Positions 11,351-63,368 of a stretch of 64,000 nt of DNA are shown here, piece by piece (the first letter of the stretch is position 1; each line of letters begins with the position of its first letter). The stretch is from positions 95,770,951-95,834,950 of the forward strand of contig OX393550.1 in assembly GCA_947650365.1 (NCBI GenBank). Direction: 5' to 3'. Position numbers and translations under genes: made by a program. The notes beneath the pieces are model-generated. The model saw only the letters and a program-made list of their open reading frames with translations, did no database searches and was not told the DNA's origin. The stretch is from Chamaelirium japonicum (Eukaryota > Streptophyta > Magnoliopsida > Liliales > Melanthiaceae).

Positions 11351-13379
11351 CTTATATCACATACAAGCCTCTTTCCATTCCCCTTATGTAGCATAGGGTG
11401 TTGGAATTGATGAGGTCTACAGTTCGTAAAAATCTATAGTTTAGATGTGTATAGTTGATAGCTTAGGATTGCATCTTGGTATACGTACTGTAGTGCGTGT
11501 TCTAATTATAGAATAGAGAGTCATGGCTATATGATAAATCTACTTGAGTGAGAGACTCAATGGACTGGTCCCATATAACTTAAACCATTCGTAGCTCTTA
11601 TTAGGGTTGGACACCCTATCAGGATAAGCTGTTTGGATGATATAGCATGGGTGTCTCCACTACGGTCATTACCAGGCACAGTGACTATGGTCGAATGGAA
11701 CCAACACGGTGTACAAATCGGTGAGCAGACATTGGTGCATTAAGTTGTCTTTCTACTTAGGGTAAAATGGTCCTAAATCTGAGGAACCACGATTGGTGGG
11801 CTAACCAATTATGTGGTGCTTTGGCGCACCAACATATGAGGGTTTAGTTATGTAACCTAAAACCACAGTGTGTTGGGTTACCTGGTTGACGTCACATCAG
11901 CATGCCACTCCTGGAGGCCATCCACACCCCCTAACAGGAGGTACGCTTCTTGGTTTGACTTATATCGTATTAAACCCAAGCCTAGTGATCACCAGTTGAA
12001 CTATTGATCATATTTGGTTACTCGGTAGGGTAATCAAAAATACGATATAGACACTTAACCTGAAAGGAACCGAGTCATATGACCACTCGAGTCTAACGGG
12101 GTTCTTCATCGCTCGAGTCAGGTCATGGCACCAAGTGGAGGGACAGCGGGTTTACCATTACTAAGCGGAGAGTATGGGTATGCGATAGAACATAGTAAAT
12201 CGAGGGGATTTGAGTGCAGCCTGCATCATACTCTGGGTGACTACGTAAGTTAACTCAGACTCAGAGAGTTGATAATACACTCAGGTAGTCTGTCGATCGA
12301 GTCTAAGTTGGAAGCCATAAACCTTGGTTCTTGAAGGTTCCACCTTATCCACATTATGTATGATCCTTGAACTATCTCTTTGTTTCACAGGACGTAATTA
12401 AAGGAGGTTATAAGTCCAACCCTAAAAATGCTCCATGTGTGCATTGCACTAGCTAGTGTACGGTAGATGCATAGATGCGTATGTGCTAGGGGAAACCCCA
12501 GAGTGGTACAGAGACACACGTAGTCAACCCCTTACCTTTAGTGGGCTTCGCTACATAGGTGTGATGCACCAGTACATGTTGCGAGTTGACTAATTGACTT
12601 TACTAGGGGCACCCTATGTATTTGCTAAGGGCACCAAGATAATAGTGAAATCACTAGTGACATCCCACGGGTATGCATCATGTGAGTCAATATACAAGTG
12701 GGCAGTCAATTAGTGCTATGAGGGTATTTTGGGAAACCAAAGTATCGCTCATGACCTAATATGGTCGACCCTATATGTTGGGGGACACACATGCCCCCCT
12801 TAACTTGTAGGAGTTGTACACTTCATAAGGAGGGGGCCGGCCTAAAAGGGTTTGATCAAAGGGGGTCGGCCATTGATCAAATCCAATCACACCGGTATCT
12901 TAAGTCCGATTCGTTTGAAGTAAGGGCTAATTACTAGTATCGTTCTCAGGGATTGTGACTACATACTCGGGTTTTTCCCATACTAGTAAATTCATTGATC
13001 GATCGGTCGTTGCCATAATTTCTTGGGTGTTTTGCATGTGTTTATCTTTTTGCTCGGTCTTGTGGTGGTCATCTCCACCGTGGTACTTCTACGCTAATTG
13101 TGTTCTACATGCGCGAGCGCCTTGGATCGTAACACCGTCTCTTTACTAAAGAACGCGTCAATAATCTCAGGCTCCGGCCAGGTTGTGCGAATGACTCACT
13201 GGGGATGGATGCTTGCCCTTTTCCAAGGGCGCGTCGAGAATATCGGAGGTTGGATCGTGCGCACGACTGCTGCAATCAAGCCGTTGAGCCATACCTCAAT
13301 ACGTTGGAGTTGTATGCGGCTTGTTTGGAGCCACATCTTCAACAAGGCCAAGAGCCCGTTGGTACATTTTGAGTTTGAT
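11351..13379. other. Unassigned intergenic DNA
   Basis: No coding exon, RNA gene or terminal repeat is evident in 2 kb. Base composition is even, unlike the AT-rich flanks, which is more typical of old retroelement sequence than of gene space. Short open frames near 12955-13385 carry no recognisable domain. They abut the LINE remnant that starts at about 13380 and may be its upstream part. Confidence 0.4.
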
Positions 13380-14096
13380 CGGTGAAAGTTATTTTGGAAA
13401 GCCAAGCAACTCTCTCCTCGTATTTGTTTCTTTCTATGGCGATCCATCTATGATGCCCTCTCTATGTGGCATTCACTTTCTTTTTGCGTCTCCATCAGCA
13501 TGGATTTTCCCCATACTAGTAAACAAAGGAAGATTACAACCCACAATGTGTTCAACCAAAGCATGGTTGAACACACCAGGGGATTGGAGAGTTGGCAAAG
13601 CAACTGATGCTTTGGTGATGAGGTTGTGGGTTCAACTCTTCCTCCCCTCGATTTACCCAGGAGTGAAGTGGGAATTGCCGAGTGGGTCGGGCTTCACTCC
13701 CGGAGGGATTAGTCCGAGCCTGAAGTGGGCCATTGCCCGAAAGGTTTCGGGACACCCGCCGATGTCAAAAAAAAAAAAAGCATGGTCACGTGTGTTGACT
13801 ATCCTAGGGACAAAGGATGGGGTGTAACCCATACAGTTAGCTTGTAGACTTCTGCTATATGGTTCGCAGATGCTAAGAGAGAACTAAGTCTACCTTCGAT
13901 AGACGGTGGGTAACTTGGAAGTTGTCATCCTCAATGATAGCCAAGTTGCACTGAAGTTGGAGAAGAGCTTTGAATGCATCACGAAAACCAAGGCATTCCT
14001 TGTTTCCCATATGTGCCAAAGGACGACGATTGTGGCTTTCTACCTAGAGCAAATCAAATCCCAGTTTGGAAGAGTCGAGGAGGAATATATAGATTC
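13380..14096 (+). mobile_element. LINE remnant, plus strand (zf-RVT and RNase H-like end)
   Basis: In one frame from 13389 the translation reads FWKAKQLSPRICFFLWRSIY, the typical reverse-transcriptase zinc-binding (zf-RVT) segment at the C-terminus of plant L1-type LINEs. Further on, 13906-13980 encodes VVILNDSQVALKL, which resembles the RNase H-like tail. Stops and frame changes show it is dead. A SINE interrupts it at 13568-13776, and it is cut at 14096 by the LTR of the next element. A related copy lies in inverted orientation at 17094-17478. Confidence 0.6.
13558..13786 (+). mobile_element. SINE insertion with target-site duplication
   Basis: The body runs about 13568-13776 and ends in a 13-base A-run. 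Both flanks carry AAAGCATGGT (13558-13567 and 13777-13786). A B-box-like GGGTTCAACTC sits near 13626-13636, with an A-box-like GAGTTGGCAAAGC upstream of it near 13589. The inverted related sequence at 17396-17478 reads straight through the same site with one AAAGCATGGT and no insert, so it preserves the empty site. Confidence 0.8.
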
Positions 14097-14278
14097 TGTT
14101 AGGAAGAGAGGGGGAGAGAGAATAGGATTAATGGGGAGAAAATCTCCTTGTATTATCTCATTGATCTCACTTTAACATTACATAAGACTACCTCTCCTTA
14201 TATAGAGAGAGAACGCACACCATTATGTTACCACAACCGAGGTGGGACTAATATATTACTAACACACTACATCTAATA
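14097..14278 (-). repeat. 3' LTR of the short-LTR element
   Basis: 182 bp, direct repeat of 16897-17075. The minus strand carries a GTCCCACCTCGG motif and a CTATATAAGGA TATA-like box that could drive transcription. Confidence 0.8.
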
Positions 14279-14760
14279 CCCCCCGTCAAACTGATGTAAG
14301 GTAGAAACCGACATCAATTTGCTTAATAAAAGGAAGGAGAAAGAAAGAAAAAAAAAATTACATCAAATAACCTTTTTTTTTTTTTGCTGAAAAGTAAAGA
14401 GTGCCAGGGCGACCTGCAAGCAAGTCGTCCTGGAAACCCGATTGACCTGCAAGCAGGACAACCGGGGGAACTCGGCCAACCTGTAAGCAGGTCAACCGGG
14501 AGAATTAGCAATGATCACTAAGGATCGGAGCGGAGGAAGCCGATGGTGATGGAAGCCGACAATAACGGAGGCCGAAAGAAGAGAGAGCGGCTAAGAAAAG
14601 AGGTGAATGCGTGAGACCTCATAAGAGGCAAGCACCCGGCCGAAGCAAGTACTTGACACCTCTTAGAAGATCTCAATCATCACAGACAAAGAAAAAAAAG
14701 AGAAGATAAAGAGTCGTAGCTCTGATAGGGTCACAAGACCAAGGAAATGAAGAGGATCCA
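14279..14760. other. Unique interior of the short-LTR element next to the 3' LTR
   Basis: No coding sequence recognised. A degenerate repeat with AACCTG(C/T)AAGCAGGTC occurs three to four times at 14410-14500, and a T-run lies at about 14373-14384. Confidence 0.5.
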
Positions 14761-14761
14761 A

Positions 14762-15160
14762 AAAGCCGGCACAAAACAAGTGTGACCGGAACTAGAGAGG
14801 ATCAAAAGCCGGCACAAGACAAGTGTGACCGGAACGAGAAAGGATCCAAAAGCCAGCACAAAACAAGTGTGACCGAAACTAGAGAGGATCAAAAGCCGGC
14901 ACAAGACAAGTGTGACCGGAATGAGAAAAGATCTAAAAAGCCGGCACAAAACAAGTGTGACCGGAACTAGAGAGGATCAAAAGCCGGCACAAGACAAGTG
15001 TGACCGGAACGAGAAAGGATCCAAAAGCCGGCACAAAACAAGTGTGACCGAAACTAAAGAGGATCTAAAAGCCGGCACAAGACAAGTGTGACCGGAACGA
15101 GAAAAAAGATCCAAAAGCCGGCACAAAACAAGTGTGACCGGAACTAGAGAGGATCTAAAA
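14762..15160. repeat. Minisatellite of about 45 bp, nine units
   Basis: Nine units share GCCGGCACAA(A/G)ACAAGTGTG followed by ACCGGAAC.AGA.AGGATC. Two slightly different unit types, with AAAACAAG and AAGACAAG, mostly alternate, giving a roughly 88-bp higher-order period. The frame is open in places only because the period is near a multiple of three. Confidence 0.9.
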
Positions 15161-15789
15161 GGTGCAAGGCGGATCGGTAGGGCGCAGAGCGCAAAAATAC
15201 CAAGGCGCAAGGGCACAGAGCGAGGCGATGGGGCAGGTGAATCGACAAAGCGCAAGAGCATAGGGTGCAAGGCGGGCTGACAAAGCTCAAGGTGCAGCGG
15301 ACGGCGAGCGCGGGATGCCAAGGCGGCCGGATCAAACGACTTAGAGCTCCGGTAGCCAGCAAGACCGATGGGTGTGGGTTGGAGCCGAAGGAGGAGCGGT
15401 AGCTCGAGCGTAGGGCCGCAGAGAGAGCGCAAGGCAAAAAATGCGAAGAGCCGGCCGTGTACGGAAGGGCCGGATCGAGTGGCGAGATGCTATGAGCACA
15501 GGATCCGGGCGGCGCAAAGGGCCAGGTGAAAGAGGGTCGGATCGGGTGCATAGGTCCGTGTCGGGTCGGATGCAGCAAGTCGCAAAGCACAGGGGCAGCA
15601 AAGCGTAAAGCACATCCATCCGATGCAAATCGGATGGCTGTGATAATTTATATAGAGAGAGAACTCGACTGCACGACGCAGTCACCGGCTCAAAGCAAGA
15701 ACGATGAGCGCGGGTTGGAGCGGAAGGATGAGCGGTGCGTGATAAGACACCGATACGGGATATCTTTCCGTACGGGATATATTCGAGTT

Positions 15790-16260
15790 CGAGACTGGAT
15801 AGGCACCGGTGCGGGATAGGTACCGGTGCAGGATAATGATATGGTGCGGGATAGTACCGAACGGACTCCGGTGCGGGATAAGTGGCCGGTGCGGGATAGT
15901 ACCGAACGGATCGGACTCCGGTGCGGGATAAGTGGCCGGTGCGGGATAGTGCCGAACGGATCGGACTTCGGTGCGGGATAAGCGGCCGGTGCGGGATAGT
16001 GCCGAACGGATCGGACTTCGGTGCGGGATAAGCGGGCGGTGCGGGATACTCGGCCGACTCGGCGGCGAAGTGGCGCAGGGCCGGGGGCCGACCGGCGCAG
16101 CTCCGGGTCGTGGTCGGCTCCCGTGCCGGTGCAGCTCCGGGTCGTGATCCACCCCGAGAAGGACTTTGGTGCCGGGGGACACAGCTCCGGGGAAGTGGCG
16201 CAGGGCCGGATTCGGCGGCGAAGTGGCGCAGGACTCGGCGGTGATCGGCTCCGGTGCCGG
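15790..16260. repeat. GC-rich tandem repeats inside the short-LTR element
   Basis: Several roughly 60-bp units with GGTGCGGGATA, AGTGGCCGGTGCGGGATAG and CCGAACGGATCGGACT repeat from about 15800 to 16045. They are followed by looser repeats with GGCGAAGTGGCGCAGG at about 16065, 16190 and 16220. They create long Pro/Arg-rich open frames on the minus strand that are not genes. Confidence 0.85.
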
Positions 16261-16395
16261 GGGACCTGCTCGGCCGGGCCGGACTCGAAGACGGGAGCGG
16301 GGGCCGGGGCCGAGCCGGAGACCGGAGCGGGGGCATCGGAGCTCCGAGCCAGAGACGGGGACGGGGCCGGGGCCAGATCGCACCTGCGATGACAT

Positions 16396-16767
16396 CGGTA
16401 CGGCCTCGCCTTCACAATCGCCCCCACCAAGGAGCTCCGGGGGGCCTTCCCGAGCCAGTACCTCGGTCTCCTCAGCCCTGTCGACAACGGCAACGCCAGC
16501 AACCACCTATTCGCCGTCGAGTTCGACACCCTCCTGAACTTGGATCTCGGGTACATCAACGACGTCGGCGTCGACATCAACGACATAGCCTCCAACGCCT
16601 CTGCCACCGCTGCCGTAGTGGGCGACGATCGGAATAAGACAGAACTGAATCTCAAGAGCGGCAGCACGATACAGGTGTGGGTCGACTACGACGGCGTCGG
16701 AAAGGTGCTCAATGTGACTGTCTCATCTTCCTCGTCGAAACCAACCAAGGGGATCACTAGTTTTTAG
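16396..16767 (+). pseudogene. Captured L-type (legume) lectin domain fragment
   Basis: An uninterrupted frame of about 120 codons encodes LAFTIAPTKELRGAFPSQYL, then HLFAVEFDTLLNLDLGYIND, then VGVDIN, and later IQVWVDYDG and LNVTVS. These are in the order of the legume-lectin domain of plant L-type lectin receptor kinases: the AVEFDT beta strand, the G.DIN strand, and Q.WVDYD with the following LNVT strand. The fragment starts in mid-domain (a stop lies just upstream at 16390) and ends at a stop at 16765-16767, so signal peptide, N-terminal half, membrane segment and kinase are all missing. It lies antisense to the host element. The full gene would be a plasma-membrane carbohydrate or ligand receptor. 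This piece is a transduplicated exon fragment. Preserved frame fits recent capture. Confidence 0.8.
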
Positions 16768-16880
16768 GAGAGAGAAACGGAAAAAAAAATATTTTGTACT
16801 GTTTCCGGCCTCCTCGATGTCATCAACGACGACTGAGGAGGCCGAGGCCGGAGAGGAGAGCGTCGAAACCCTAGGCGAGG

Positions 16881-16896
16881 GTTGGCTCTGATACCA
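16881..16896 (-). promoter_or_regulatory. Primer-binding site (initiator tRNA-Met)
   Basis: The minus strand reads TGGTATCAGAGCCAAC directly adjacent to the 5' LTR end. This matches the 3' end complement of plant initiator tRNA-Met and fixes the element's orientation. Confidence 0.85.
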
Positions 16897-17075
16897 TGTT
16901 ACGAAGAGAGGGGGAGAGAGAATAGGATTGGGGAGAAAATCTCCTTGTATTATCTCATTGATCTCACTTTAACATTACATAAGACTACCTCTCCTTATAT
17001 AGAGAGAGAACGCACACCATTATGTTACCACAACCGAGGTGGGACTAATATATTACTAACACACTACATCTAATA
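16897..17075 (-). repeat. 5' LTR of the short-LTR element
   Basis: 179 bp, almost identical to 14097-14278. It contains the TATA-like CTATATAAGGA on the minus strand. Confidence 0.8.
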
Positions 17076-17093
17076 ATCAAATCCTGGAGGAAT

Positions 17094-17478
17094 CTCTTTT
17101 TTTTTTTTTGAGTAAAGAAAATACACTACAAAGACCTAAAGAGTCACCAGAACCAAATCACCGTCCTCTGCGGGATCAGGATTGACCCTTAGCATCCAAA
17201 TCGATCAACACCTGAAGATCATGAGGCAAAAGCATTGGAGAAAGCAAAACCGGGCCCATCGAAAAGCCATGCCAGCCAACCAATCAGCCACCGTGTTTCA
17301 CTCTCGATACACGTGAGAGATCCTGCGAACCTAGGACATCCATAGTGAATGGGACACCAAACTAAATGACAATCGCGACCTCATACTCAAAGTATGGGTT
17401 ACACCCCATCCTTTGTCCCTAGGATAGTCAATGCATGTGACCATGCTTTTGTTGGACACATTGTGGATTGTAATCTTC
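17094..17478 (-). mobile_element. LINE remnant, minus strand, 3' end with poly(A)
   Basis: On the minus strand the translation near 17300 reads ISHVYRE, a stop, then NTVADWLAGMAF, the conserved end of the RNase H-like domain in plant LINEs. It is followed by a short 3' tail and an A-run (complement of the T-run at about 17096-17110). Positions 17396-17478 are a diverged inverted copy of 13524-13567 plus 13787-13837, without the SINE. Decayed and non-coding. Confidence 0.65.
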
Positions 17479-18253
<775 letters not shown>

Positions 18254-28120: not shown

Positions 28121-28380
28121 CCCTGGTGGTTGTGGTTGGGCTATGGGGTTGGGTGAGGTTTGAGTTAGGAATTCATGATACTAGATAGTGTGCAAACTTT
28201 ATTATATTTTCATCATCATCGAAGTCTAATCCCGTCAAGATGGAATTAAGTGTAAGGAATTATTAACAAGGATTTCCTAACCGACGATCAAGCTATCCCA
28301 TCACCTCTCTAAGATTGGTATTGAAAACCTGACAGTGCAACATGGCAAGATTGGGGCAACCAAGAAACCTAATAGGCTAG

Positions 28381-28602
28381 TTGACGGGTAAGGAAGGAGG
28401 CCTACCTACCCAGTTTAAACACATGCAAGAAGAATTAAGAAACAACCCTCCAAGGTTACCAGAACTAGGAAAGAGTCTAGACGGAGATTGTAGAATGTGG
28501 GATTTGATATATGGAATGACCTTTATCTCTATGGCACAATTTATGAGCCAGAGGGGTGAAATGAAGCAACATTCTAGAAGTCTGAGCTTTGACCTTGGTT
28601 AA
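28381..28602 (+). other. Unknown open frame upstream of GME (copy 2 at 44070-44291)
   Basis: An open stretch of about 73 codons without an ATG start contains RLPELGKSLDGDCRMWDLIY and ends LSFDLG, with no simple-repeat character. It directly follows a stop codon and is not linked to any exon. I do not recognise it. It may be a remnant of a gene or transposon. Identical in both copies, which says nothing about selection because the copies are nearly identical overall. Confidence 0.25.
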
Positions 28603-29220
28603 CACTTAACATTTACCTTGTTTTCATGCTCAATTCGTTTTTTGTGGAGGGTTCCAACCGCTATATATGTAGATGTCAAAAGACCACGTCTAAAATAATA
28701 AGGCTTGTTGGCTAATGAGTGTGTTTTTATTGGATCTCAATCCTATGACTGGTGTTGGATTGATATGATGGGTTACCAGTTTTTCCCTAAAACTACTGGT
28801 TTGAGGCTGTAATCCTTCTGAGATTTGTATTTAAATATTTTTTCTGAGGTCTGATCCTTGACTTAAAGCTTGCAATGATATTTGACTAATATGTTTGTTC
28901 GTTGTCGTTTCCCATGGGTCTATTTCAGCCCTTAAAATGCTGGGTTAGAGTGTTCTGATTGTGTTTGCGTTGTAGCGTATTTGCTTCGGGTTTTCTTACC
29001 CTGGATTGTAAATCAGATTTTTTGTCCTCTTCAGATATTAGTTATATTTCACACCGTTTTTAGATTTTCTTGCTTTACGTATTTTTTCATCTCAGAAAGG
29101 ATTTCAATTGGATTTTTTTTGTAATTTTTCCTTGCATAATTATAAGTTGCTTTTATTCCCTTCTTTGGGTATTAGTCATAAATCTATATATGATCATCCT
29201 GGTTTTACGAATGATGCAGA

Positions 29221-37093
<7,873 letters not shown>

Positions 37094-37249
37094 AGCTGAT
37101 GTGCTTGGCTAGGGTGGAGGAAATCGAAATCATGGCGTGATTCGGAGTCGATTGTAGTATCTCGGCTTTTCATTGCTGCTTTAAGATATGGTGAAGGGAT
37201 GTGTTTTTTTGATCCCTATGCAATAATATATTTATAAAATGTGTTTTCG

Positions 37250-37665
37250 TTAGGTTTGGGTTTGAGCCAACCCGAAACGAACCGAAGTAGTTTGGTTTTA
37301 CCGTATTGAAATCCGAACCAATCCAAATTGGGCATAGACCCGAACCGAACCAACTGATATTAATGTCGGTTAAAAAATAATGGCTATTGGTTATTTATTA
37401 GCAAGCCAGAGGTCTGCATTAGGCTTTAGTCCTTTGTTGTTTCTCCCAGTAGTTGGTTCAATGTTAGCAAACGGTTACTTATGTGCTATTGTGATGTGGG
37501 CTTGTCTTGTATGTGGGCTTATATGTTGGAGTTCTGTTCTCAGGATTGGTCGGGTCTATTCGAACCCCAACTCGGAACCAACTTATATTTAATCGGTTCC
37601 CTAAAGCTAAGAACCGAACCAACCCATTTGGTCAAAATACCCGACCCAAGTTGCACCCCCAGCAC
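37250..37665. mobile_element. hAT-like non-autonomous fragment 3' of GME
   Basis: GAACCGAACC and GGTTCGG-type words occur at both sides. The right end reads ACCCGACCCAAGTTGCACCC, the terminus type of plant hAT-like elements. The left terminus is not clear. It lies about 30 bp after the GME poly(A) signal. Copy 2 is at about 52914-53329. Confidence 0.45.
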
Positions 37666-39235
37666 CAAGTAGGTGCCAATATTGCTGGGACAATCGCAAC
37701 CATCCTTTTACTTGCTGGTCGGGGCTGTGGTGTAGGGTGCATGCAATGGAACAGATAAAGGGGCAGACCGCAGACGGATCGAAAGGCATGAATTTAAGGC
37801 AGCAAGATACACAATCTGTATAGAAAACTAGTAAGAAACCGGGGCAATGCCCGAATGAACTTGATGCACGATATTTGACACAGACAATGTCACAGTTGTC
37901 CGAATAATATGGAGTGTGATTCACTCACTCCAGATTAGCATCAAACGGTTTTCCTAATGATTTTCCTAATTAGCATCAAATGATCATTAAATATCATTGA
38001 ATGGGTATTTGTTATAGATTTTCATAATTGGTTTTTAATAGGATCCAAGAGAGAGAACCGTGTTCACACACGGGAGAAAGATAAGGGTTTTTTAAATAGA
38101 TGTCCACGGATCACAACAGGGGAGAGAGGGCTCCATTTTAGTATTATACTATTATATTGAACAAAACTTTATTTTTTAGTTGCGAAAATGGACGATGAAG
38201 TTTAACAAGTTGGCGACCAAAAAGTCCGAAAACACAATTATTGATCTAGGTTTTGCTTATGGATTTATGTCCGTCGGCACAGGCAACAAATATACCCAAA
38301 CAATCATCCTTCACAATTTTCTAAAATCTCAAGCTTAAAGATCAATAATTATAAGTCATTAGGTTTTTCATTGATCTTCATCAACTCACACCACTACAGC
38401 GACGTCGGTCACACCTAGATGGCGAAGCACCTCTCACTCTGGGTGAGTGGTCTCACGTTCGACATATGCTTCTACTTTGGAGCAGTGTTAAAATCCTAAT
38501 GGGTCCAGAATGGGCAGTCTCGACAAGTTTTAAACCTTGATCGGGGGGTTGGTACCCATGTTGTGTTTCCGGTAGGCTGTAGCTGACTACAAAAAAAAAA
38601 CTGACACCACCACCCACCCACCCCACCAACTAAAAAAAAAAATCAAAAAATAAAAAGGAACATGAATTGCATTTTATCCATACCCCTCAAATAAATCCGC
38701 ACTTTTGGGACCTTACATCCTTCCATCTTTTTGTATTGAGTTTTCATTTTACGCTTCACCTTATATATTAATCCACGCCCAATATTTTGAATCTCATGAA
38801 AACAAACACAAAGACTAGGACTGCAATATATCATTTTTGCTCCTTCCCGTTCCATCCCTATACAATCACAAATACCATCCAAGAATATTACCCTTTTGCC
38901 ACTAATCAATTGAGTCTTTTTTTTTTTTGAAAGGTCAATTGAGTTTTATTTATCCATTTAAAAAACCAAGGGCTATTATGGAAATAAATCGCACTAACCC
39001 ATTCTTCCTTTCATCCTATTTTTTGTTTTCCATTTTGTCCTTCTCTTTTTTTCCACTAATCAATTGAATCTTATTTATCTATTAAAAAAAAGATTATAAT
39101 GGGAAGGGCAATCCCTCTAATCCACTAACTCATTCTTCCTTCCATCCTACAATTTGTTTCCCATTTTCCCCTTCTCAATCCTATTTTTTTAAACAACATC
39201 AACGGAAATACTTGGGTAGGGTATGGGCATTGGAA
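37666..39235. other. Intergenic DNA, AT-rich
   Basis: No gene recognised. Two similar lines with ATCAATTGA(G/A)TCTTATTTATC and CATTCTTCCTTTCATCCTA near 38905-39030 and 39055-39160 form a loose tandem repeat of about 130 bp. Confidence 0.5.
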
Positions 39236-39285
39236 CTAGGGGTGGCAATGAGTCATGTCCAAAACCCCTAGATCCAGACCCGACC
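39236..39285. mobile_element. hAT-like terminal fragment
   Basis: CTAGGGGTGGCAATGAGTC followed by CCAAAACCCCTAGATCC matches the reversed terminus at about 20600-20666. It is cut off at the start of the next repeat. Copy 2 is at about 54899-54948. Confidence 0.55.
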
Positions 39286-41091
39286 TGTCACGCTCTGAAT
39301 TTCACTCTGCAGCGAGAAATCTCGGGCGTGAGATTTTACTGTCATTTTTTTTTTGAAAGAAAAGGAAAAGAGAAAAGGTTTTTAAGTTTAGTTGTTCTTC
39401 CATATTTGGACCAATCCAATGCTTGAAGACACTAGAGCACCCGTTCTCGCAAGGAATATAAGAAAATTATTTTGTGGAAAAATAATATTGCTCGACTGTT
39501 AGAGGGCATCACTCTTGGAAGGAGGGAGACAACTCCCTAAATTATTCTAAGAGTTTTGCACTCGTAGGAGCACAAGACTCAGGCCTAGAAGACGAGTCAT
39601 TCCTTACGTCACTCTGAATTGGCCTTAAGTGGCTCCGCACACTCAATTATTTTATAATTAAGATTAGCAGAAGCAGTTGGTATCCCAAGTCAGAATAACA
39701 CACCACCAGAAGCAAACTTTTATATATCAACGATCTTTATATTATTTTTGGAATATTTGATTATACTATCATACTGATCCAAATAAGACCAGCCTTGAAT
39801 CTAAAGTTCATGCTCTAGCTCCAGTGCTTCACAGCTACTCCATAGCTTCTAGCCCCCACTATTTCATCAGCTACATACGTCCGTCTGATCCATGAACTCA
39901 ACTCTATCTTATACCTGAGTTTGTGCCCAACAAAGAAAACGCACACAAACCCTGAGTTACTTAGAAGACTAAATGACTTAGTGAGCCACGCTAATATATA
40001 TCAAAAGAAACTCATAAAAAAAATAAATGGTGCTTTAATTGACATCATCCTTTGTTGTTCAACCTAAATCAAGTCATTCCTCTCTAGCATCATATCTTGA
40101 GTTATATTATACCTCTCATTATTTCTTGACATAAATTATGTTATTTTGACTAATATCAATTCTCAATTAATATCATACCTTTAGTACTTTTAATATTATA
40201 AGAATATCGTTATTTGAATAATATCGAATCTCACTCATATCTCAGATAATGCCATACCTTTTATACTTTAAATGTTATACGAATATCACTATTCGAATAA
40301 TATCGAATCTCATGAAATATCATCTCTCAAAGAATATCGAGTCTTTGTCCTAAGACCTTCATCAGCGATGCAAACACTGTTATACTCATCATGATCTAGC
40401 ATAGACTTCTACAACCGATGTCTATCATAAAATTACTTTCACAACCTTAACCACTAGTCTTAGGGTACTCAAAAGAGACCACCAGCACCCAAAGACTCCT
40501 AGTGATAAGCCAGAATACTAAAGAGGTCTACACATCAACCAAACCGGTCTGTTGTATTTTGGTGTATCTGATTTTTCAAATTTAGGGCTAGAATTATAAC
40601 TCTAACAGTTATTCTAGGGTGCTGATATCATAATTCAAACAACTTATTTACGGTATTCAAAAGAGACCACCAGCATCCAAAGACTCCTTGCAATAAGGCA
40701 GATTACTCTATGAGTCTACACATCAACCAAACTAGTCCGATGAATCATGGTGTATTTGATTCCCCTAATCTAATGCTCGGACCCTAAACACGCATCTAAG
40801 TTTCTGAGGTGGCCAATATGGAGACTAGGGGAATGACCCTATCTCCAAATCGTTGTGTGATCCTAAGCTCAATCAATTCTTAGTTTTACATTGTAGGTTT
40901 TGCCCTCGCATGCGGTAACGAGATCACAACTGCATGTGATTTGGGTTACACCCGTCCACACGCATCATCATCTCACTTTCCGCATGCATTGTTAGGACCT
41001 ACTACTTTATAAAATAATTCATATCTTACTAATACAAGTCATAGACTCCAGACATGCATCAAACCCGAGGGTTTGGTCACATGCCGTGACA
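39286..41091. repeat. Long LTR-like repeat with internal tandem repeats
   Basis: It begins TGTCACGCTCTGAATTTCAC, like many gypsy LTRs (TGTCACG...), and a possible end in CCGTGACA lies at 41091. Inside are a 188-bp tandem duplication (AAAAGAGACCACCAGCA at about 40470 and 40658) and AATATCGAATCTCA-type repeats at 40140-40340. No coding region. A solo LTR is my best guess, but no target-site duplication was found. Copy 2 is at 54949-56756. Confidence 0.4.
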
Positions 41092-41549
41092 TAGCCACTC
41101 AAGGCGAATTCAATCATACATATAATACAAGACTACAAATGTTGCCCCGCGTAATACAACATTACCTTCGGTAGATAGATGACGTGTGCTCCAACCAAAT
41201 CCGGACAGGGGACACGTCCCCTAACTACGTTAGGTAATGCACTAACCATACTAAGTAATTTCTATAATACCTAAACATTGATTCTATTCCTAATATGCTC
41301 CCGCATCCCATACAATACACTTATTATCTAAATCCCTAAACTACCTATGTGACCGTGCATCACCGTCATGCCTTTTTGCTTGTCATTATCTTAACCCACT
41401 AAAAGTAAAGGAAGTTGCTATTTTACACCCAACAAATTACTTACACCCCTAACCTAACAAATAAAGAAATGTCGGATGTATCCCACAACATCCCACACAT
41501 ATTGATATGCATATTGTCACCTCCACTGCCTCCTCCTCCTCCCCTACTT

Positions 41550-41581
<32 letters not shown>

Positions 41582-42159
41582 TTGCATATGGGTCAGTCAC
41601 TCTCAACTGACATGGTGGTCAATTTCTCATGGCCGACATGTCATGGTTCATGTTGGTCGCGATCAAATAATCGCATTATTTTCTAAGCTAATCTTAGATT
41701 AGGCCTATTAGATTCAGTTTTGTTGAACCTACACCTCTAGGTCCGGACTAGACTCAAATGGCTGGGTCCGAGTCAGATATATATCGGTTTCGATGGGACC
41801 ACATTCATCCGACTCACTAGCTTGCAGCACGCAGCACGCAAGTAAAACCTAAAATATGGTGAGGGGTGTACCTAAACCTTATGTTTTTATCTTGTAAAGA
41901 ACTATTTATCATATTTAAATAAGGAGAGAAAAGGATAAAGAATTTAAAATATTATCACCATTGATTATTTAATCACACAAGGTGCAACAATTAATTCTCA
42001 CCCATTGACATGCAAAATAATTTACAATAGAAAAAAAGTATCCCTCGATAACTTTGCTCTGAATTTAGAGTCTCTTGAAGAATTACTTGATAAAGACTCC
42101 AAAGATTCTCACAAAATTAAGAATACTCTTCACCATGATCAAATATCTTCTCTAGATAA
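41092..42159. other. Intergenic DNA with a long C-run
   Basis: No gene seen. A C-run of about 32 bases lies at 41549-41580; in copy 2 (57217-57252) it is longer and interrupted by T. Such runs are difficult for sequencing. Confidence 0.6.
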
Positions 42160-42404
42160 GGGGGTGTTTGGCATGACGAACAGTTGTTCTGCTTAATCCT
42201 CATCCAACAGAGGGTATTTTTGTCAATTTACCACTTCTAGTGTAAATTCGATGGTTCAAACGTCCGATTGGTAGAGAAACACACGGAGCAATAAATTCTC
42301 GGTTCCCAACTCTTCATTCCACTAGAACAAATAATAGCCATTACTTTTAAAATCTGAAACCGAGAATAGAAACTGGAGGTTCCGGAATGATGCCAAACAC
42401 CCCC
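42160..42404. mobile_element. Tourist-like MITE with TAA target-site duplication
   Basis: The ends GGGGGTGTTTGGCAT and ATGCCAAACACCCCC are a perfect inverted repeat, flanked on both sides by TAA (42157-42159 and 42405-42407), the PIF/Harbinger signature. Length 245 bp, non-coding. In copy 2 it is 57845-58087 with the same TAA. Confidence 0.9.
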
Positions 42405-42716
42405 TAAGTACGTCACCTCAGTTCGTAGGCTTTCGAATATATCAAAGTTCTCAACCTTAATTGTTGTATTAGTTGATTTAGCAGCTCGGGATTTGAATCT
42501 TATTGTATTCGAGGATGAATCTTCCTCTGGTCTTATTAATTTGGATGATTAACTTTGTATGGATTTTGCTTTGGGTTTGGGTCTGGGGCGCCATGAATAG
42601 ATCCCCATGATTGTTGTAAAAAAAAAAAATTTGGTTGAAGAATTTTTTTCTTGAAGATGAATTGTTATTAAGTATTACTAAGGATAAGAATGTGCGATTC
42701 ATGTGTATGAAGAGGG

Positions 42717-42719
<3 letters not shown>

Positions 42720-42778
<59 letters not shown>

Positions 42779-42795
42779 GGGGGGGGGGGGGGGGA
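42720..42795. repeat. (GA)n followed by G-run
   Basis: (GA)n to about 42775, then a G-run with one interruption to about 42794. Copy 2 (58404-58463) is clearly shorter in both parts. Confidence 0.9.
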
Positions 42796-42874
42796 CTTGG
42801 AAAGCGCAACAGCGAAAGATTCAAGTTATTATTATATTTCCTGAGCTTAATGTGTCGTTTCTTTGGTTTAATTA

Positions 42875-43309
42875 GAAACAAAAAAATGTTGTAGATGTGT
42901 AGATTTTTAGGTCCAGGAGTCCAACTTCCTCCATCATTTTTTTTTTGGGTGATTTGTAGGGGAGATCACAACAGACCTCAGAGGCACCACAACCTCGTGC
43001 AAGTAACAAAAAGAGTCGCCACTTTGGCGAAAAAGAAATTGCCACATCCCAGCGAAGACACCCACGGTCTAAAACCAACACAAACATCGCCACACCGGCA
43101 AACAACCATAAGGACACCAGCCCTAAAATCGCCACACCGGCGAGCCAACATCAGGGTCAACATTCCACCACAAGCCTACATACCAGTGCAGCAACAAAGA
43201 AAAGGAAAAAAAATTACCCATCTAAAGGCCATCACAAGCCCAAAACCGGAGGAACCGCAATGTAGTCGGCACTCTGCCAGCCAGCAGTCCAGGGACCGCC
43301 ACTCTGAGC
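42875..43309. other. Empty site and flank of the copia insertion, end of the left contig
   Basis: TTAGAAAC at 42872-42879 is where copy 2 is interrupted by the copia LTR. Here the sequence simply continues with AAAAAAATGTTG to the N-run at 43310. No gene recognised. Open frames here run only into the gap. Confidence 0.8.
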
Positions 43310-43809: not shown

Positions 43810-44909
43810 CCCTGGTGGTTGTGGTTGGGCTATGGGGTTGGGTGAGGTTTGAGTTAGGAATTCATGATACTAGATAGTGTGCAAACTTTATTATATTTTC
43901 ATCATCATCGAAGTCTAATCCCGTCAAGATGGAATTAAGTGTAAGGAATTATTAACAAGGATTTCCTAACCGACGATCAAGCTATCCCATCACCTCTCTA
44001 AGATTGGTATTGAAAACCTGACAGTGCAACATGGCAAGATTGGGGCAACCAAGAAACCTAATAGGCTAGTTGACGGGTAAGGAAGGAGGCCTACCTACCC
44101 AGTTTAAACACATGCAAGAAGAATTAAGAAACAACCCTCCAAGGTTACCAGAACTAGGAAAGAGTCTAGACGGAGATTGTAGAATGTGGGATTTGATATA
44201 TGGAATGACCTTTATCTCTATGGCACAATTTATGAGCCAGAGGGGTGAAATGAAGCAACATTCTAGAAGTCTGAGCTTTGACCTTGGTTAACACTTAACA
44301 TTTACCTTGTTTTCATGCTCAATTCGTTTTTTGTGGAGGGTTCCAACCGCTATATATGTAGATGTCAAAAGACCACGTCTAAAATAATAAGGCTTGTTGG
44401 CTAATGAGTGTGTTTTTATTGGATCTCAATCCTATGACTGGTGTTGGATTGATATGATGGGTTACCAGTTTTTCCCTAAAACTACTGGTTTGAGGCTGTA
44501 ATCCTTCTGAGATTTGTATTTAAATATTTTTTCTGAGGTCTGATCCTTGACTTAAAGCTTGCAATGATATTTGACTAATATGTTTGTTCGTTGTCGTTTC
44601 CCATGGGTCTATTTCAGCCCTTAAAATGCTGGGTTAGAGTGTTCTGATTGTGTTTGCGTTGTAGCGTATTTGCTTCGGGTTTTCTTACCCTGGATTGTAA
44701 ATCAGATTTTTTGTCCTCTTCAGATATTAGTTATATTTCACACCGTTTTTAGATTTTCTTGCTTTACGTATTTTTTCATCTCAGAAAGGATTTCAATTGG
44801 ATTTTTTTTGTAATTTTTCCTTGCATAATTATAAGTTGCTTTTATTCCCTTCTTTGGGTATTAGTCATAAATCTATATATGATCATCCTGGTTTTACGAA
44901 TGATGCAGA

Positions 44910-52757
<7,848 letters not shown>

Positions 52758-54948
52758 AGCTGATGTGCTTGGCTAGGGTGGAGGAAATCGAAATCATGGC
52801 GTGATTCGGAGTCGATTGTAGTATCTCGGCTTTTCATTGCTGCTTTAAGATATGGTGAAGGGATGTGTTTTTTTGATCCCTATGCAATAATATATTTATA
52901 AAATGTGTTTTCGTTAGGTTTGGGTTTGAGCCAACCCGAAACGAACCGAAGTAGTTTGGTTTTACCGTATTGAAATCCGAACCAATCCAAATTGGGCATA
53001 GACCCGAACCGAACCAACTGATATTAATGTCGGTTAAAAAATAATGGCTATTGGTTATTTATTAGCAAGCCAGAGGTCTGCATTAGGCTTTAGTCCTTTG
53101 TTGTTTCTCCCAGTAGTTGGTTCAATGTTAGCAAACGGTTACTTATGTGCTATTGTGATGTGGGCTTGTCTTGTATGTGGGCTTATATGTTGGAGTTCTG
53201 TTCTCAGGATTGGTCGGGTCTATTCGAACCCCAACTCGGAACCAACTTATATTTAATCGGTTCCCTAAAGCTAAGAACCGAACCAACCCATTTGGTCAAA
53301 ATACCCGACCCAAGTTGCACCCCCAGCACCAAGTAGGTGCCAATATTGCTGGGACAATCGCAACCATCCTTTTACTTGCTGGTCGGGGCTGTGGTGTAGG
53401 GTGCATGCAATGGAACAGATAAAGGGGCAGACCGCAGACGGATCGAAAGGCATGAATTTAAGGCAGCAAGATACACAATCTGTATAGAAAACTAGTAAGA
53501 AACCGGGGCAATGCCCGAATGAACTTGATGCACGATATTTGACACAGACAATGTCACAGTTGTCCGAATAATATGGAGTGTGATTCACTCACTCCAGATT
53601 AGCATCAAACGGTTTTCCTAATGATTTTCCTAATTAGCATCAAATGATCATTAAATATCATTGAATGGGTATTTGTTATAGATTTTCATAATTGGTTTTT
53701 AATAGGATCCAAGAGAGAGAACCGTGTTCACACACGGGAGAAAGATAAGGGTTTTTAAATAGATGTCCACGGATCACAACAGGGGAGAGAGGGCTCCATT
53801 TTAGTATTATACTATTATATTGAACAAAACTTTATTTTTTAGTTGCGAAAATGGACGATGAAGTTTAACAAGTTGGCGACCAAAAAGTCCGAAAACACAA
53901 TTATTGATCTAGGTTTTGCTTATGGATTTATGTCCGTCGGCACAGGCAACAAATATACCCAAACAATCATCCTTCACAATTTTCTAAAATCTCAAGCTTA
54001 AAGATCAATAATTATAAGTCATTAGGCTTTTCATTGATCTTCATCAACTCACACCACTACAGCGACGTCGGTCACACCTAGATGGCGAAGCACCTCTCAC
54101 TCTGGGTGAGTGGTCTCACGTTCGACATATGCTTCTACTGTGGAGCAGTGTTAAAATCCTAATGGGTCCAGAATGGGCAGTCTCGACAAGTTTTAAACCT
54201 TGATCGGGGGGTTGGTACCCATGTTGTGTTTCCGGTAGGCTGTAGCTGACTACAAAAAAAAAACTGACACCACCACCCACCCACCCCACCAACTAAAAAA
54301 AAAAATCAAAAAATAAAAAGGAACATGAATTGCATTTTATCCATACCCCTCAAATAAATCCGTACTTTTGGGACCTTACATCCTTCCATCTTTTTGTATT
54401 GAGTTTTCATTTTACGCATCACCTTATATATTAATCCACGCCCAATATTTTGAATCTCATGAAAACAAACACAAAGACTAGGACTGCAATATATCATTTT
54501 TGCTCCTTCCCGTTCCATCCCTATACAATCACAAATACCATCCAAGAATATTACCCTTTTGCCACTAATCAATTGAGTCTTTTTTTTTTTTGAAAGGTCA
54601 ATTGAGTCTTATTTATCCATTTAAAAAACCAAGGGCTATAATGGAAATAAATCGCACTAACCCATTCTTCCTTTCATCCTATTTTTTGTTTTCCATTTTG
54701 TCCTTCTCTTTTTTTCCACTAATCAATTGAATCTTATTTATCTATTAAAAAAAAGATTATAATGGGAAGGGCAATCCCTCTAATCCACTAACTCATTCTT
54801 CCTTCCATCCTACAATTTGTTTCCCATTTTTTCCTTCTCAATCCTATTTTTTAAAACAACATCAACGGAAATACTTGGGTAGGGTATGGGCATTGGAACT
54901 AGGGGTGGCAATGAGTCATGTCCAAAACCCCTAGATCCGGACCCGACC

Positions 54949-56756
54949 TGTCACGCTCTGAATTTCACTCTGCAGCGAGAAATCTCGGGCGTGAGATTTT
55001 ACTGTCATTTTTTTTTTGAAAGAAAAGGAAAAGAGAAAAGGTTTTTAAGTTTAGTTTGTTCTTCCATATTTGGACCAATCCAATGCTTGAAGACACTAGA
55101 GCACCCGTTCTCGCAAGGAATATAAGAAAATTATTTTGTGGAAAAATAATATTGCTCGACTGTTAGAGGGCATCACTCTTGGAAGGAGGGAGACAACTCC
55201 CTAAATTATTCTAAGAGTTTTGCACTCGTAGGAGCACAAGACTCAGGCCTAGAAGACGAGTCATTCCTTACGTCACTCTGAATTGGCCTTAAGCGGCTCC
55301 GCACACTCAATTATTTTATAATTAAGATTAGCAGAAGTAGTTGGTATCCCAAGTCAGAATAACACACCACCAGAAGCAAACTTTTATATATCAACGATCT
55401 TTATATTATTTTTGGAATATTTGATTTTACTATCATACTGATCCAAATAAGACCAGCCTTGAATCTAAAGTTCATGCTCTAGCTCCAGTGCTTCACAACT
55501 ACTCCATAGCTTCTAGCCCCCACTATTTCATCAGCTACATACGTCTGTCTGATCCACGAACTCAACTCTATCTTATACCTGAGTTTGTGCCCAACAAAGA
55601 AAACGCACACAAACCCTGAGTTACTTAGAAGACTAAATGACTTAGTGAGCCACGCTAATATATATCAAAAGAAACTCATAAAAAAAATAAATGGTGCTTT
55701 AATTGACATCATCCTTTGTTGTTCAACCTAAATCAAGTCATTCCTCTCTAGCATCGTATCTTGAGTTATATTATACCTCTCGTTATTTCTTGACATAAAT
55801 TATGTTATTTTGACTAATATCAATTCTCAATTAATATCATACCTTTAGTACTTTTAATATTATAAGAATATCGTTATTTGAATAATATCGAATCTCACTC
55901 ATATCTCAGATAATGCCATACCTTTTATACTTTAAATGTTATACGAATATCACTATTCGAATAATATCGAATCTCATGAAATATCATCTCTCAAAGAATA
56001 TCGAGTCTTTGTCCTAAGACCTTCATCAGTGATGCAAACACTGTTATACTCATCATGATCTAGCATAGACTTCTACAACCGATGTCTATCATAAAATTAC
56101 TATCACAACCTTAACCACTAGTCTTAGGGTACTCAAAAGAGACCACCAGCACCCAAAGACTCCTAGCGATAAGCCAGAATACTAAAGAGGTCTACACATA
56201 AACCAAACCGGTCTGTTGTATTTTGGTGTCTCTGATTTTTCGAATTTAGGGCTAGAATTATAACTCTAACAGCTATTCTAGGGTGCTGATATCATAATTC
56301 AAACAACTTATTTACGATATTCAAAAGAGACCACCAGCATCCAAAGACTCCTTGCAATAAGGCAGATTACTCTATGAGTCTACACATCAACCAAACTAGT
56401 TCGATGAATCAGGGTGTATTTGATTCCCCTAATCTAATGCCCGGACCCTAAACACGCATCTAAGTTTCTGAGGTGACCAATATGGAGACTAGGGAATGAC
56501 CCTATCTCCAAATCGTTGTGTGATCCTAAGCTCAATCAATTCTTAGTTTTACATTGTAGGTTTTGCCCTCGCATGCGGGCAACGAGATCACCAACTGCAT
56601 GTGATTTGGGTTTACACCCGTAACACGCGATCTAGTGTCACTTTCCGCATGCATTGTTAGGACCTACTACTTTATAAAATAATTCATATCTTACTAATAC
56701 AAGTCATAGACTCCAGACATGCACAAAACCCGAGGGTCTGGTCACATGCCGTGACA
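54949..56756. repeat. Long LTR-like repeat, copy 2
   Basis: Counterpart of 39286-41091 with about 1 percent differences. The clearest divergence from copy 1 is near 56578-56640, where several indels cluster. Confidence 0.4.
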
Positions 56757-57844
56757 TAGCCACTCAAGGCGAATTCAATCATACATATAATACAAGACTA
56801 CAAATGTTGCCCGCGTAATACAACATTACCTTCGGTAGATAGATGACGTGTGCTCCCAACCAAATCCGGACAGGGGACACGTCCCCTAACTACGTTAGGT
56901 AATGCACTAACCATACTAAGTAATTTATATAATACCTAAACATTGATTCTATTCCTAATATGCTCCCGCATCCATACAATACACTTATTATCTAAATCCC
57001 TAAATTACCTATGTGACCGTGCATCACCGTCATGCCTTTTTGCTTGTCATTATCTTAACCCACTAAAAGTAAAGGAAGTTGCTATTTTACACCCAACAAA
57101 TTACTTACACCCCTAACCTAACAAATAAAGAAATGTCGGATGTATCCCACAACATCCCACACATATTGATATGCATATTGTCACCTCCACTGCCTCCTCC
57201 TCCTCCCCTACTTTGCCCCCCCTCCCCCCCCCCCCCCCCCCCCCCCCCCCCCATTCCTTCTCATTCCTACATATGGGTCAGTCACTCTCAACTGACATGG
57301 TGGTCAATTTCTCATGGCCGACATGTCATGGTTCATGTTGGTCGCGATCAAATAATCGCATTATTTTCTAAGCTAATCTTAGATTAGGCCTATTAGATTC
57401 AGTTTTGTTGAACCTACACCTCTAGGCCCGGACTAGACTCAAATGGCTGGGTCCGAGTCAGATATATATCGGTTTCGATGGACCACATTCATCCGACTCA
57501 CTAGCTTGCAGCACGCAGCACGCAAGTAAAACCTAAAATATGGTGAGGGGTGTACCTAAACCTTATGTTTTTATCTAGTAAAGAACTATTTATCAGATTT
57601 AAATAAGGAGAGAAAAGGATAAAGAATTTAAAATATTATCACCATTGATTATTTAATCACACAAGGTGCAACAATTAATTCTCACCCATTGTCATGCTAA
57701 ATAATTTACAATAGAAAAAAAGTATCCCTCGATAACTTTGCTCTGAATTTAGAGTTCTCTTGAAGAATTACTTGATAAAGACTCCAAAGATTCTCACAAA
57801 ATTAAGAATACTCTTCACCATGATCAAATATCTTCTCTAGATAA

Positions 57845-58087
57845 GGGGGTGTTTGGCATGAGGAACAGTTGTTCCGCTTAATCCTCATCCAACAGAGGGT
57901 ATTTTTGTCAATTTACCACTTCTAGTGTAAATTCGATGGTTCAACGTCCGATTGGTAGAGAAACACACGGAGCAATAAATTCTCGTTCCCAACTCTTCAT
58001 TCCACTAGAACAAATAATAGCCATTACTTTTAAAATCTGAAACCGAGAATAGAAACTGGAGGTTCCGGAATGATGCCAAACACCCCC
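57845..58087. mobile_element. Tourist-like MITE, copy 2
   Basis: Counterpart of 42160-42404, flanked by TAA at 57842-57844 and 58088-58090. Confidence 0.9.
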
Positions 58088-58401
58088 TAAGTACGTCACC
58101 TCAAGTTCGTAGGCTTTCGAATATATCAAAGTTCTCAACCTTAATTGTTGTATTAGTTGATTTAGCAGCTCGGGATTTGAATCGTATTGTATTCGAGGAT
58201 GAATCTTCCTCTGGTCTTATTAATTTGGATGATTAACGTTGTATGGATTTTGCTTTGGGTTTGGGTCTGGGGCGCCATGAATAGATCCCCATGATTGTTG
58301 TAAAAAAAAAAATTTTGGTTGAAGAATTTTTTTCTTTGAAGATGAATTGTTATTAAGTATTACTAAGGATAAGAATGTGCGATTCATGTGTATGAAGAGG
58401 G

Positions 58402-58453
<52 letters not shown>

Positions 58454-58547
58454 GGGGGGGGGGCTTGGAAAGCGCAACAGCAAAAGATTCAAGTTATTAT
58501 TATATTTCCTGAGCTTAATGTGTCGTTTCTTTGGTTTAATTAGAAAC

Positions 58548-59263
58548 TGTTGGGGTTCCATCCCCATGGAGGAGACCCAAAGGGGAGGGGAGCATAGCTC
58601 CTTCCCAATCGGACTTGCACCCGAGTCACCCGGCGCGAGACCCGACTCGCCCGGGCGAGTTCCTTAGCCACAAATGAGCAGAAAATTCAGCAAACCCACT
58701 TGGGCGAAGTCGGGTCGGATCTGTTTTTCTGCAGACCCGTTTTGGGATGTTTTAAAGGCTCTTTGAAGGGGCTTTTGGAGTATGCTTGAGTTGGCTTTGA
58801 GAAACCTTGGAGGGGCTTTGAGGGCTGATTTTCTAAGGGAGAATGAGTGCTTTCTTCTACAAGGGAGGAAAAGATTTCCTTGGGGATCGATCTTCGACGG
58901 ATAGATCGGATCTAAGCTTGCAAAGAGGTATGTTCCTTGAGGCTTGCTAGGGTCTCTACTTGTTGAGCCCTAGAAGGGGGGAAAGGTGTAGATCTAGAAG
59001 GAGGAAGAAGAAGGAGTCGGGTTGTACTCTCGTCTTGCTTGCCGTCTTTGATAGTGAAGCCCTCCCCCGAGCATTTGCTCCGAGCATTTGCTCACCGTGG
59101 TTTTTCCCGCAAGGGTTTCCACGTAAATCACCGAGTCATCTTCTTTGCTTGTGATTGAATTATTTTGCATTTGTGATTGGATTGTTGTTTGCTCCTTTTT
59201 TGGTTCATCTCACGGGGAAGAGATCGTCGGTTTCGTGGTTGAGCCGGTGCGGTTTTCCCATCA
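58548..59263 (+). repeat. 5' LTR of the copia element
   Basis: 716 bp, TGTTGGGG...CCCATCA, with the standard TG and CA ends. Its direct repeat begins at 63369. It overlaps the start of a spurious open frame. Confidence 0.95.
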
Positions 59264-59265
59264 AG

Positions 59266-59277
59266 TGGTATCAGAGC
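59266..59277 (+). promoter_or_regulatory. Primer-binding site (initiator tRNA-Met)
   Basis: TGGTATCAGAGC lies two bases after the LTR end and matches the 3' end complement of initiator tRNA-Met, as usual for plant copia elements. Confidence 0.95.
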
Positions 59278-59327
59278 ACGGGTTGTGCACACAAGGTGTT
59301 TGTTCTTGTGTCTGTGAGAAATCAAAA

Positions 59328-63323: not shown

Positions 63324-63349
63324 TGGCTTTGAAGACGTCTTCCTCTCCA

Positions 63350-63368
63350 TGGGTCTGGAGGGGGAGAT
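63350..63368 (+). promoter_or_regulatory. Polypurine tract
   Basis: GGAGGGGGAGAT directly precedes the 3' LTR and would prime plus-strand synthesis. Confidence 0.85.

What the first reader, a model, noticed from the sequence alone, without database searches (positions are those of the whole stretch)
14097..17075. Young gene-capturing short-LTR retroelement carrying an L-type lectin receptor fragment
Seen: about 180-bp LTRs that differ at about one base plus a 3-bp indel, a perfect tRNA-Met primer site on the minus strand, no gag-pol, and an uninterrupted 120-codon lectin-domain fragment in antisense. Established: short-LTR (TRIM-like) elements occasionally transduce host exons, as maize Bs1 did. 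Inference: this is a TRIM or LARD-type family that captured part of a lectin receptor kinase gene and moved recently. Antisense transcription from the LTR could produce small RNAs against receptor genes.
Basis: partly seen in the sequence, partly recalled or inferred. Interest (0 to 1): 0.8.

Follow-up and report, generated by a model that had tools for sequence, protein, structure and literature searches.

The report
Retrotransposon family with swappable gene cargo
A short plant retrotransposon that carries a backward piece of a lectin receptor gene belongs to a family in which several copies carry pieces of different host genes in the same place, so it looks like a natural gene-fragment shuffler.

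Summary
14097-17075 is a non-autonomous LTR element on the minus strand: LTRs of 179/182 bp (1 mismatch, one 3-bp indel), primer site, polypurine tract, no gag-pol seen, and an antisense L-type lectin fragment (Pfam E 3e-29). The host genome, apparently a plant, could be searched. I examined 29 two-LTR copies close to this LTR: 22 have perfect 5-bp target duplications and 5 have identical LTRs. The frame is shared, but the slot behind the leader differs. Of 21 other representative copies, 8 carry recognisable host domains in that slot (WRKY, cyclophilin, PPR, thaumatin, cytidine deaminase, G-patch, DUF1005, methyltransferase), in either orientation. Four further copies carry the same lectin piece at other loci. 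The likely donor is an uninterrupted lectin receptor kinase frame on another contig, 3.9-5.6% from the copies. The window copy is a mosaic (AU test p = 0.003) and lacks a target duplication. Capture predates the last jump. Template switching or DNA repair as the capture route is unresolved; small RNAs were not tested.

The parts
16897..17075 (-). 5' LTR (179 bp, TATTAG...TAACA)
16883..16896 (-). primer-binding site TGGTATCAGAGCCA (initiator tRNA-Met type; tRNA match recalled)
16806..16844 (-). leader hairpin GGCCTCC...GGAGGCC; found in the first 118 nt of 28 of 29 copies, and further down, behind a G-run, in the 29th (L032)
16781..16800 (-). A/T-rich tract behind the hairpin; in this copy the lectin piece starts about 35 nt beyond it
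16397..16747 (+). captured fragment of an L-type lectin receptor kinase coding sequence, antisense to the element RNA; lacks 6 bp (in frame) that the four siblings and both donor-type genes have
16051..16392 (.). GC-rich stretch matched only in the lectin-bearing copies; origin unknown
15843..16048 (.). 50-bp tandem repeat, about 4 copies, matched only in lectin-bearing copies
15162..15660 (-). internal region matched, with gaps, in 22 of the 24 other elements (not L021, L031)
14753..15161 (-). tandem repeat of 44/88-bp units, matched in 23 of the 24 other elements (not L031)
14279..14750 (-). 3' internal region, matched in 23 of the 24 other elements (not L031), ending in the polypurine tract (14279-14287)
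14097..14278 (-). 3' LTR (182 bp)

Best explanation
A non-autonomous short-LTR retrotransposon whose family keeps a constant frame (LTRs, primer site, leader hairpin, 44-bp repeats, polypurine end) and an exchangeable slot behind the leader that in several copies holds fragments of different host genes. The window copy carries 349 bp of an L-type lectin receptor kinase coding sequence in antisense. Shown: the family, different cargo in one slot, donor-type genes, repeated retrotransposition of the lectin lineage, and exchange of LTRs between lineages. Inferred: copies move in trans with the enzymes of an autonomous element (superfamily not determined), and new cargo enters when reverse transcriptase switches templates near the leader hairpin and A/U tract while two RNAs share a particle. 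The cargo is most likely a passenger; if LTR transcripts are made they would contain antisense lectin-receptor RNA.
For: LTR search of the host genome: 40 scored hits out of 2,712 first-look candidates, most of those fetched in pairs 2.4-3.3 kb apart. Of 29 two-LTR copies, 22 have perfect 5-bp target duplications (18 of 25; 4 of 4), 5 have identical LTRs and 19 have at most 2 mismatches. Lectin, GC-rich and 50-bp-repeat segments have no match in the 24 other elements. Host domains in the slot of 8 of 21 representative copies, E 1.7e-8 or better: thaumatin, G-patch, Methyltransf_29 (sense); cyclophilin, DUF1005, WRKY, PPR, cytidine deaminase (antisense). Donor-type gene: 727 codons open as far as fetched, Lectin_legB 8.8e-76 over profile 3-248 of 250. 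WRKY donor candidate: 95% identity in a 426-aa frame. Window LTRs group with L009 (97/88); one LTR clade for the five lectin copies is rejected, AU p 0.0034. Leader fold z -3.68, 0 of 200 shuffles.
Against: Six of nine identified cargoes are antisense, which a switch onto an ordinary mRNA during minus-strand synthesis does not explain. Both donors traced are intronless, so RNA-level capture is not proven. Thirteen of the 21 representatives have no assigned Pfam cargo (one further hit, DUF7138 at 8e-5, was not traced to a copy). L031, the methyltransferase carrier, is a rearranged 1,235-bp pair without the 3' half; without it the count is 7 of 20. The window copy has no target duplication. No autonomous partner was found, and none was sought beyond. 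Copies were chosen by likeness to the window LTR.
Confidence: 0.78

Rival explanations
1. The family is as described, but cargo enters at the DNA level: breaks at the hairpin or A/T tract are repaired with filler copied from genes, and the filled element is then transcribed and retrotransposed.
For: Both orientations occur, six of nine antisense. The two traced donors are intronless, so genomic DNA would give the same product. The slot lies beside a hairpin-forming sequence.
Against: LTR and cargo histories disagree (AU p 0.0034), so templates are exchanged in this family. L036 carries a duplicated half hairpin plus A/T tract, as stuttering synthesis would leave. Neither point concerns the capture of host genes directly.
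Confidence: 0.38
2. The lectin piece belongs to the genomic location and two unrelated repeats flank it by chance.
For: No target duplication at the window copy.
Against: Four other copies with the same junctions at other loci between target duplications (in c44 the duplication borders an extra partial LTR); donor-type genes on contig C4 without leader or LTR.
Confidence: 0.01
3. The fragment is maintained by selection as an antisense regulator or a small lectin peptide.
For: Open frame in the window copy and in three of the four siblings. The element shares 76 and 72 exact 21-mers with two donor-type genes.
Against: One sibling has a TAA stop, the window copy alone lacks 6 bp, and six of the ten changes shared by the five copies alter the amino acid. 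No expression data.
Confidence: 0.08

Closest known systems
Bs1 of maize
   Same: LTR element that carries exon-only fragments of three host genes (passages in PMC4717578 and PMC13317346; the Bs1 paper asked for was not held).
   Different: Described there as one element with three captured genes; here different copies of one family carry different genes in one slot. Bs1 sequence was not compared.
Gene-carrying TRIMs (e.g. GmaRetroS15 of soybean; the Arabidopsis TRIM with a P450-like fragment)
   Same: Short LTRs, 5-bp target duplications, exon-only fragments, more than one gene in some copies (PMC4717578; PMC13317346).
   Different: Reported as 30 elements of seven subfamilies, 1,172-1,449 bp; the copies here are 2.4-3.3 kb (except L031) with 44-bp repeat arrays.
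Long Veju elements of wheat
   Same: A short LTR element enlarged by foreign sequence, attributed to template switching between co-packaged RNAs.
   Different: The inserted sequence is described there as unknown, not as a range of host genes.
Pack-MULEs and Pack-CACTA elements
   Same: Many copies of one family carry different host gene fragments (partly recalled; named).
   Different: They are DNA transposons; here LTRs, primer site and polypurine tract point to retrotransposition.

Membership tests
LTR retrotransposon (order) | Direct LTRs, tRNA primer site, polypurine tract | tested here: met
LTR retrotransposon (order) | Target-site duplication | tested here: met
   22 of 29 copies, perfect 5 bp; not met by the window copy itself
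TRIM | No gag-pol coding capacity | tested here: met
   No retroelement domain in the window ORFs or in 126 frames of 21 slots. tblastn with the window's Copia gag and pol hit 8 of the 30 regions, in each case outside the element by my comparison of coordinates
TRIM | Short LTRs (68.1% of subfamilies under 250 bp) | tested here: met
   177-188 bp; criterion from PMC4717578
TRIM | Small total size (77.9% of subfamilies under 1,000 bp) | tested here: not met
   2,979 bp; other copies 2.4-3.3 kb except L031. One review lets TRIM reach 4 kb (PMC6696364), so the label depends on the definition
LARD | Length over 4 kb | tested here: not met
   2,979 bp (definition)
Copia or Gypsy superfamily | RT/integrase order or sequence | not testable with these tools
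   no coding region; no autonomous partner identified
Bs1-like gene-transducing element | Host exon fragments inside LTRs that moved after capture | tested here: met
Bs1-like gene-transducing element | Captured from spliced RNA (introns absent) | tested here: inconclusive
   both traced donors are intronless; the multi-exon test did not complete by the tool

The most novel reading that the evidence does not exclude
The leader hairpin plus A/T tract is a capture site proper: a retrotransposon family that has repeatedly and independently loaded fragments of unrelated host genes, in either orientation, at one position, and that reshuffles LTRs and cargo between lineages, so that the genome holds a moving library of antisense and sense gene fragments under LTR promoters.
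Probability: 0.35. Interest if true: 0.8.

Novelty: new variant of a known kind. Interest (0 to 1): 0.64.

Why it matters
How plant LTR elements take up host genes rests, in what I read, on rather few cases. Here one family gives many captures at a shared position, with donor genes in the same genome and young copies, so junction rules, orientation bias, RNA or DNA origin, and effects on donor genes can be tested directly. Antisense receptor fragments under LTR control are also a possible source of small RNAs against a receptor family.

Tried and rejected
Ancestral lectin locus with chance repeats: rejected. TRIM or LARD by size: not met in the strict sense. Lectin open frame as evidence of coding by its length: rejected (358 of 500 shuffles). 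The long minus-strand frames (up to 356 aa) are reached by 4 of 500 shuffles, but have no Pfam match and cross tandem repeats, so I read nothing into them. A hidden target duplication of the window copy: not found. The 9-base match ATCAAATCC on both flanks is rare in random trials (30 of 20,000) and the 21-base alignment score was reached by 57 of 20,000, but on the left it ends 35 bp from the LTR; a link with LINE remnants on both flanks is suspected (RVT_3 at only E 0.014 on the right, nothing on the left) and left open. The WRKY cargo does not decide RNA or DNA capture, as the donor candidate is itself intronless. Ideas by eye that Pfam did not confirm: BTB/ankyrin-like cargo in L010 and L020, C2-domain-like cargo in L014, DnaJ-type cargo in L015 (E 0.26). 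The DUF7138 hit (8e-5) was not traced, which scanned only part of the sense frames. No tRNA gene in the window; no Rfam match at E 0.1 in 13000-18000. No covariation control was run for the leader hairpin beyond the pair counts. An earlier count said the hairpin is lost in L032; one search shows it is there, displaced by a G-run.

Full report
OBSERVATION. The two repeats at 14097-14278 and 16897-17075 align over their whole length with one substitution and one 3-bp indel. On the minus strand the order is LTR (TATTAG...TAACA), primer site TGGTATCAGAGCCA, a leader, cargo, 50-bp repeats, 44-bp repeats, polypurine tract GACGGGGGG, LTR. That the primer site matches the 3' end of plant initiator tRNA-Met is recalled, not tested. 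The plus-strand frame 16393-16764 matches the legume lectin domain (PF00139, E 3.3e-29, profile 83-197 of 250), and the five minus-strand ORFs of 120 aa or more have no retroelement domain. The length of the open lectin frame alone is not unusual (358 of 500 shuffles).

FAMILY. The host assembly is held (1.52 Gb, 3,253 contigs; a plant by its gene content, my inference). The LTR search scored 40 of 2,712 candidates, 93-100% identical. From these I fetched 30 regions. One search lists 28 LTR pairs including the window's; the two overlapping pairs of L009 were taken as one element with the outer LTRs and the two of L038 were dropped, leaving 25 elements. Six regions gave no element (five with a single LTR hit, and L038). 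Four lectin siblings were added, making 29. Perfect 5-bp target duplications: 18 of 25 plus 4 of 4 (in c44 the duplication borders an extra partial LTR outside the full one). Among the seven without, some LTR ends were only extrapolated (L021, L024, L035). LTR mismatches range from 0 to 8; five copies are identical and 19 have at most two. The copies were chosen by likeness to the window LTR, so ages and cargo frequencies describe its nearest relatives, not the whole family.

CARGO. The 44-bp repeats and 3' region match in 23 of the 24 other elements (not L031), while the lectin, GC-rich and 50-bp-repeat segments match in none. Some copies share cargo (L014, L016, L022; L012, L027). I scanned 699-747 bp of the slot of 21 representatives (the 24 others less L016, L022, L027) in six frames, stops read as X, against Pfam (126 frames), with assignment to copies. 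In sense: L032 thaumatin 1e-22, split over two frames; L020 G-patch 1.8e-13; L031 Methyltransf_29 8e-77. In antisense: L021 cyclophilin 3.7e-38, L023 DUF1005 2.2e-30, L036 WRKY 2.6e-25, L028 PPR 1.3e-15, L034 cytidine deaminase 1.7e-8. One DUF7138 hit (8e-5, sense) is unassigned. Thirteen of the 21 have no assigned host domain. L031 is a rearranged 1,235-bp pair without the 3' half and with about 29 bp of its left flank repeated before the second LTR; it is the weakest member, and without it the count is 7 of 20. With the window lectin this makes nine different host families, six antisense and three sense.

LECTIN LINEAGE AND DONOR. The lectin protein finds 30 places in the genome from 37 candidates. 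Four are further copies in the same frame, matching the window from the GC-rich part through lectin, leader and LTR at 92-96%. All four lie between target duplications, and c41 and c43 have identical LTRs. One more is a partial copy (L045, 250 bp). Two donor-type genes on contig C4 (the window is on C2) match only the captured part in the stretch compared and lie in open frames of 768 aa. The C4:46.1-Mb gene is open over 727 codons as far as fetched; its lectin domain scores 8.8e-76 over profile 3-248 of 250; the membrane and kinase parts are read by eye, as Pfam saw only the start of the kinase (0.026). Over the captured 355 bp, donor-type genes and copies differ by 3.9-5.6%, copies among themselves by 0.9-3.1%, and the window LTRs by 1 of 179 aligned bases plus the indel. 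So capture precedes the last transposition, unless a closer donor exists or existed. The window copy alone lacks 6 bp that siblings and donor-type genes have. The element holds 76 and 72 exact 21-mers of the two donor-type genes, longest exact run 54 nt.

MOSAICISM AND MECHANISM. The window LTRs are closest to L009 (98.9% and 97.8%), a copy without lectin, while leader and cargo are closest to lectin siblings. In the LTR tree (179 columns; 15 of 25 inner branches open) the window groups with L009 (97/88), and one clade for the five lectin copies is rejected (AU p 0.0034). LTRs and cargo have therefore been exchanged, as expected when reverse transcriptase switches between co-packaged RNAs. Precedents: Onsen recombination (PMC5668417, two passages) and Triticeae complex elements (PMC1950507, passages including the abstract). 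The leader ends in a hairpin found in the first 118 nt of 28 of 29 copies and, displaced by a G-run, in the 29th. One pair shows two-sided change (20 T-A, 6 C-G), others mostly one-sided changes. In the window the leader folds better than 200 of 200 shuffles (z -3.68). An A/T tract follows, and the copies diverge soon after it; in the window the lectin piece starts about 35 nt beyond. In L036 half the hairpin and the tract are duplicated. That the hairpin promotes switching, or serves packaging or dimerisation, is inference. Antisense cargo is the main difficulty for capture from mRNA. DNA-level filling is the chief rival and is not excluded, because the lectin donor and the WRKY donor candidate are both intronless.

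PLACE AMONG KNOWN THINGS. Plant LTR elements with captured genes are established: Bs1, gene-carrying TRIMs (30 elements of seven subfamilies; PMC4717578, passages and part 1 of the Results), captured genes in rice and sorghum LTR elements (PMC3726574, passages), and a 2026 review (PMC13317346, passages and outline). In the listings of seven literature searches and the passages read I did not see a single LTR family with this many different host genes in one slot; that is a statement about those searches in an open-access library only.

VERDICT. The larger finding is the family. Not shown: expression, small RNAs, the autonomous partner, RNA versus DNA capture, the whole-family count, and why this copy lacks a target duplication.

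Noticed in passing
window 28121-42879 and 43810-58547: Near-identical repeat of about 15 kb (98.96-99.5%) around a 500-N gap near 43.3-43.8 kb; by eye it holds a GDP-mannose-epimerase-like gene twice. Recent tandem duplication or an assembly artefact.
   Followed up: no
window 58548-64000: Copia element with gag and pol frames (Pfam) and direct repeats 98.7% identical at its ends, reaching the window end.
   Followed up: partly
window 13518-13834 and 17392-17489: Inverted repeat on both sides of the element (pieces of 62 bp at 94% and 50 bp at 90%); the left copy is split by an insert of about 200 bp that ends in an A-run between short repeats (SINE-like, by eye).
   Followed up: partly
window 17098-17490: Reversed LINE-like 3' end with poly(A), close beside the element (RVT_3 E 0.014 only).
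   Followed up: partly
G000 C4:42.3-42.75 Mb and C4:45.77-46.19 Mb: The lectin receptor kinase cluster appears twice, about 3.4 Mb apart, with matching gene pairs: large duplication or uncollapsed haplotype.
   Followed up: no
G000 C2:68840296-68840790: A WRKY gene with an uninterrupted 426-aa frame where some related WRKY genes of this genome match in pieces that break near residues 53 and 97; possibly a retrogene.
   Followed up: no
L036 leader: Half hairpin plus A/T tract duplicated in tandem just before the WRKY cargo.
   Followed up: no
L037 element and flanks: Copia pol matches lie directly on both sides of this element, as if it had inserted into a Copia element.
   Followed up: no
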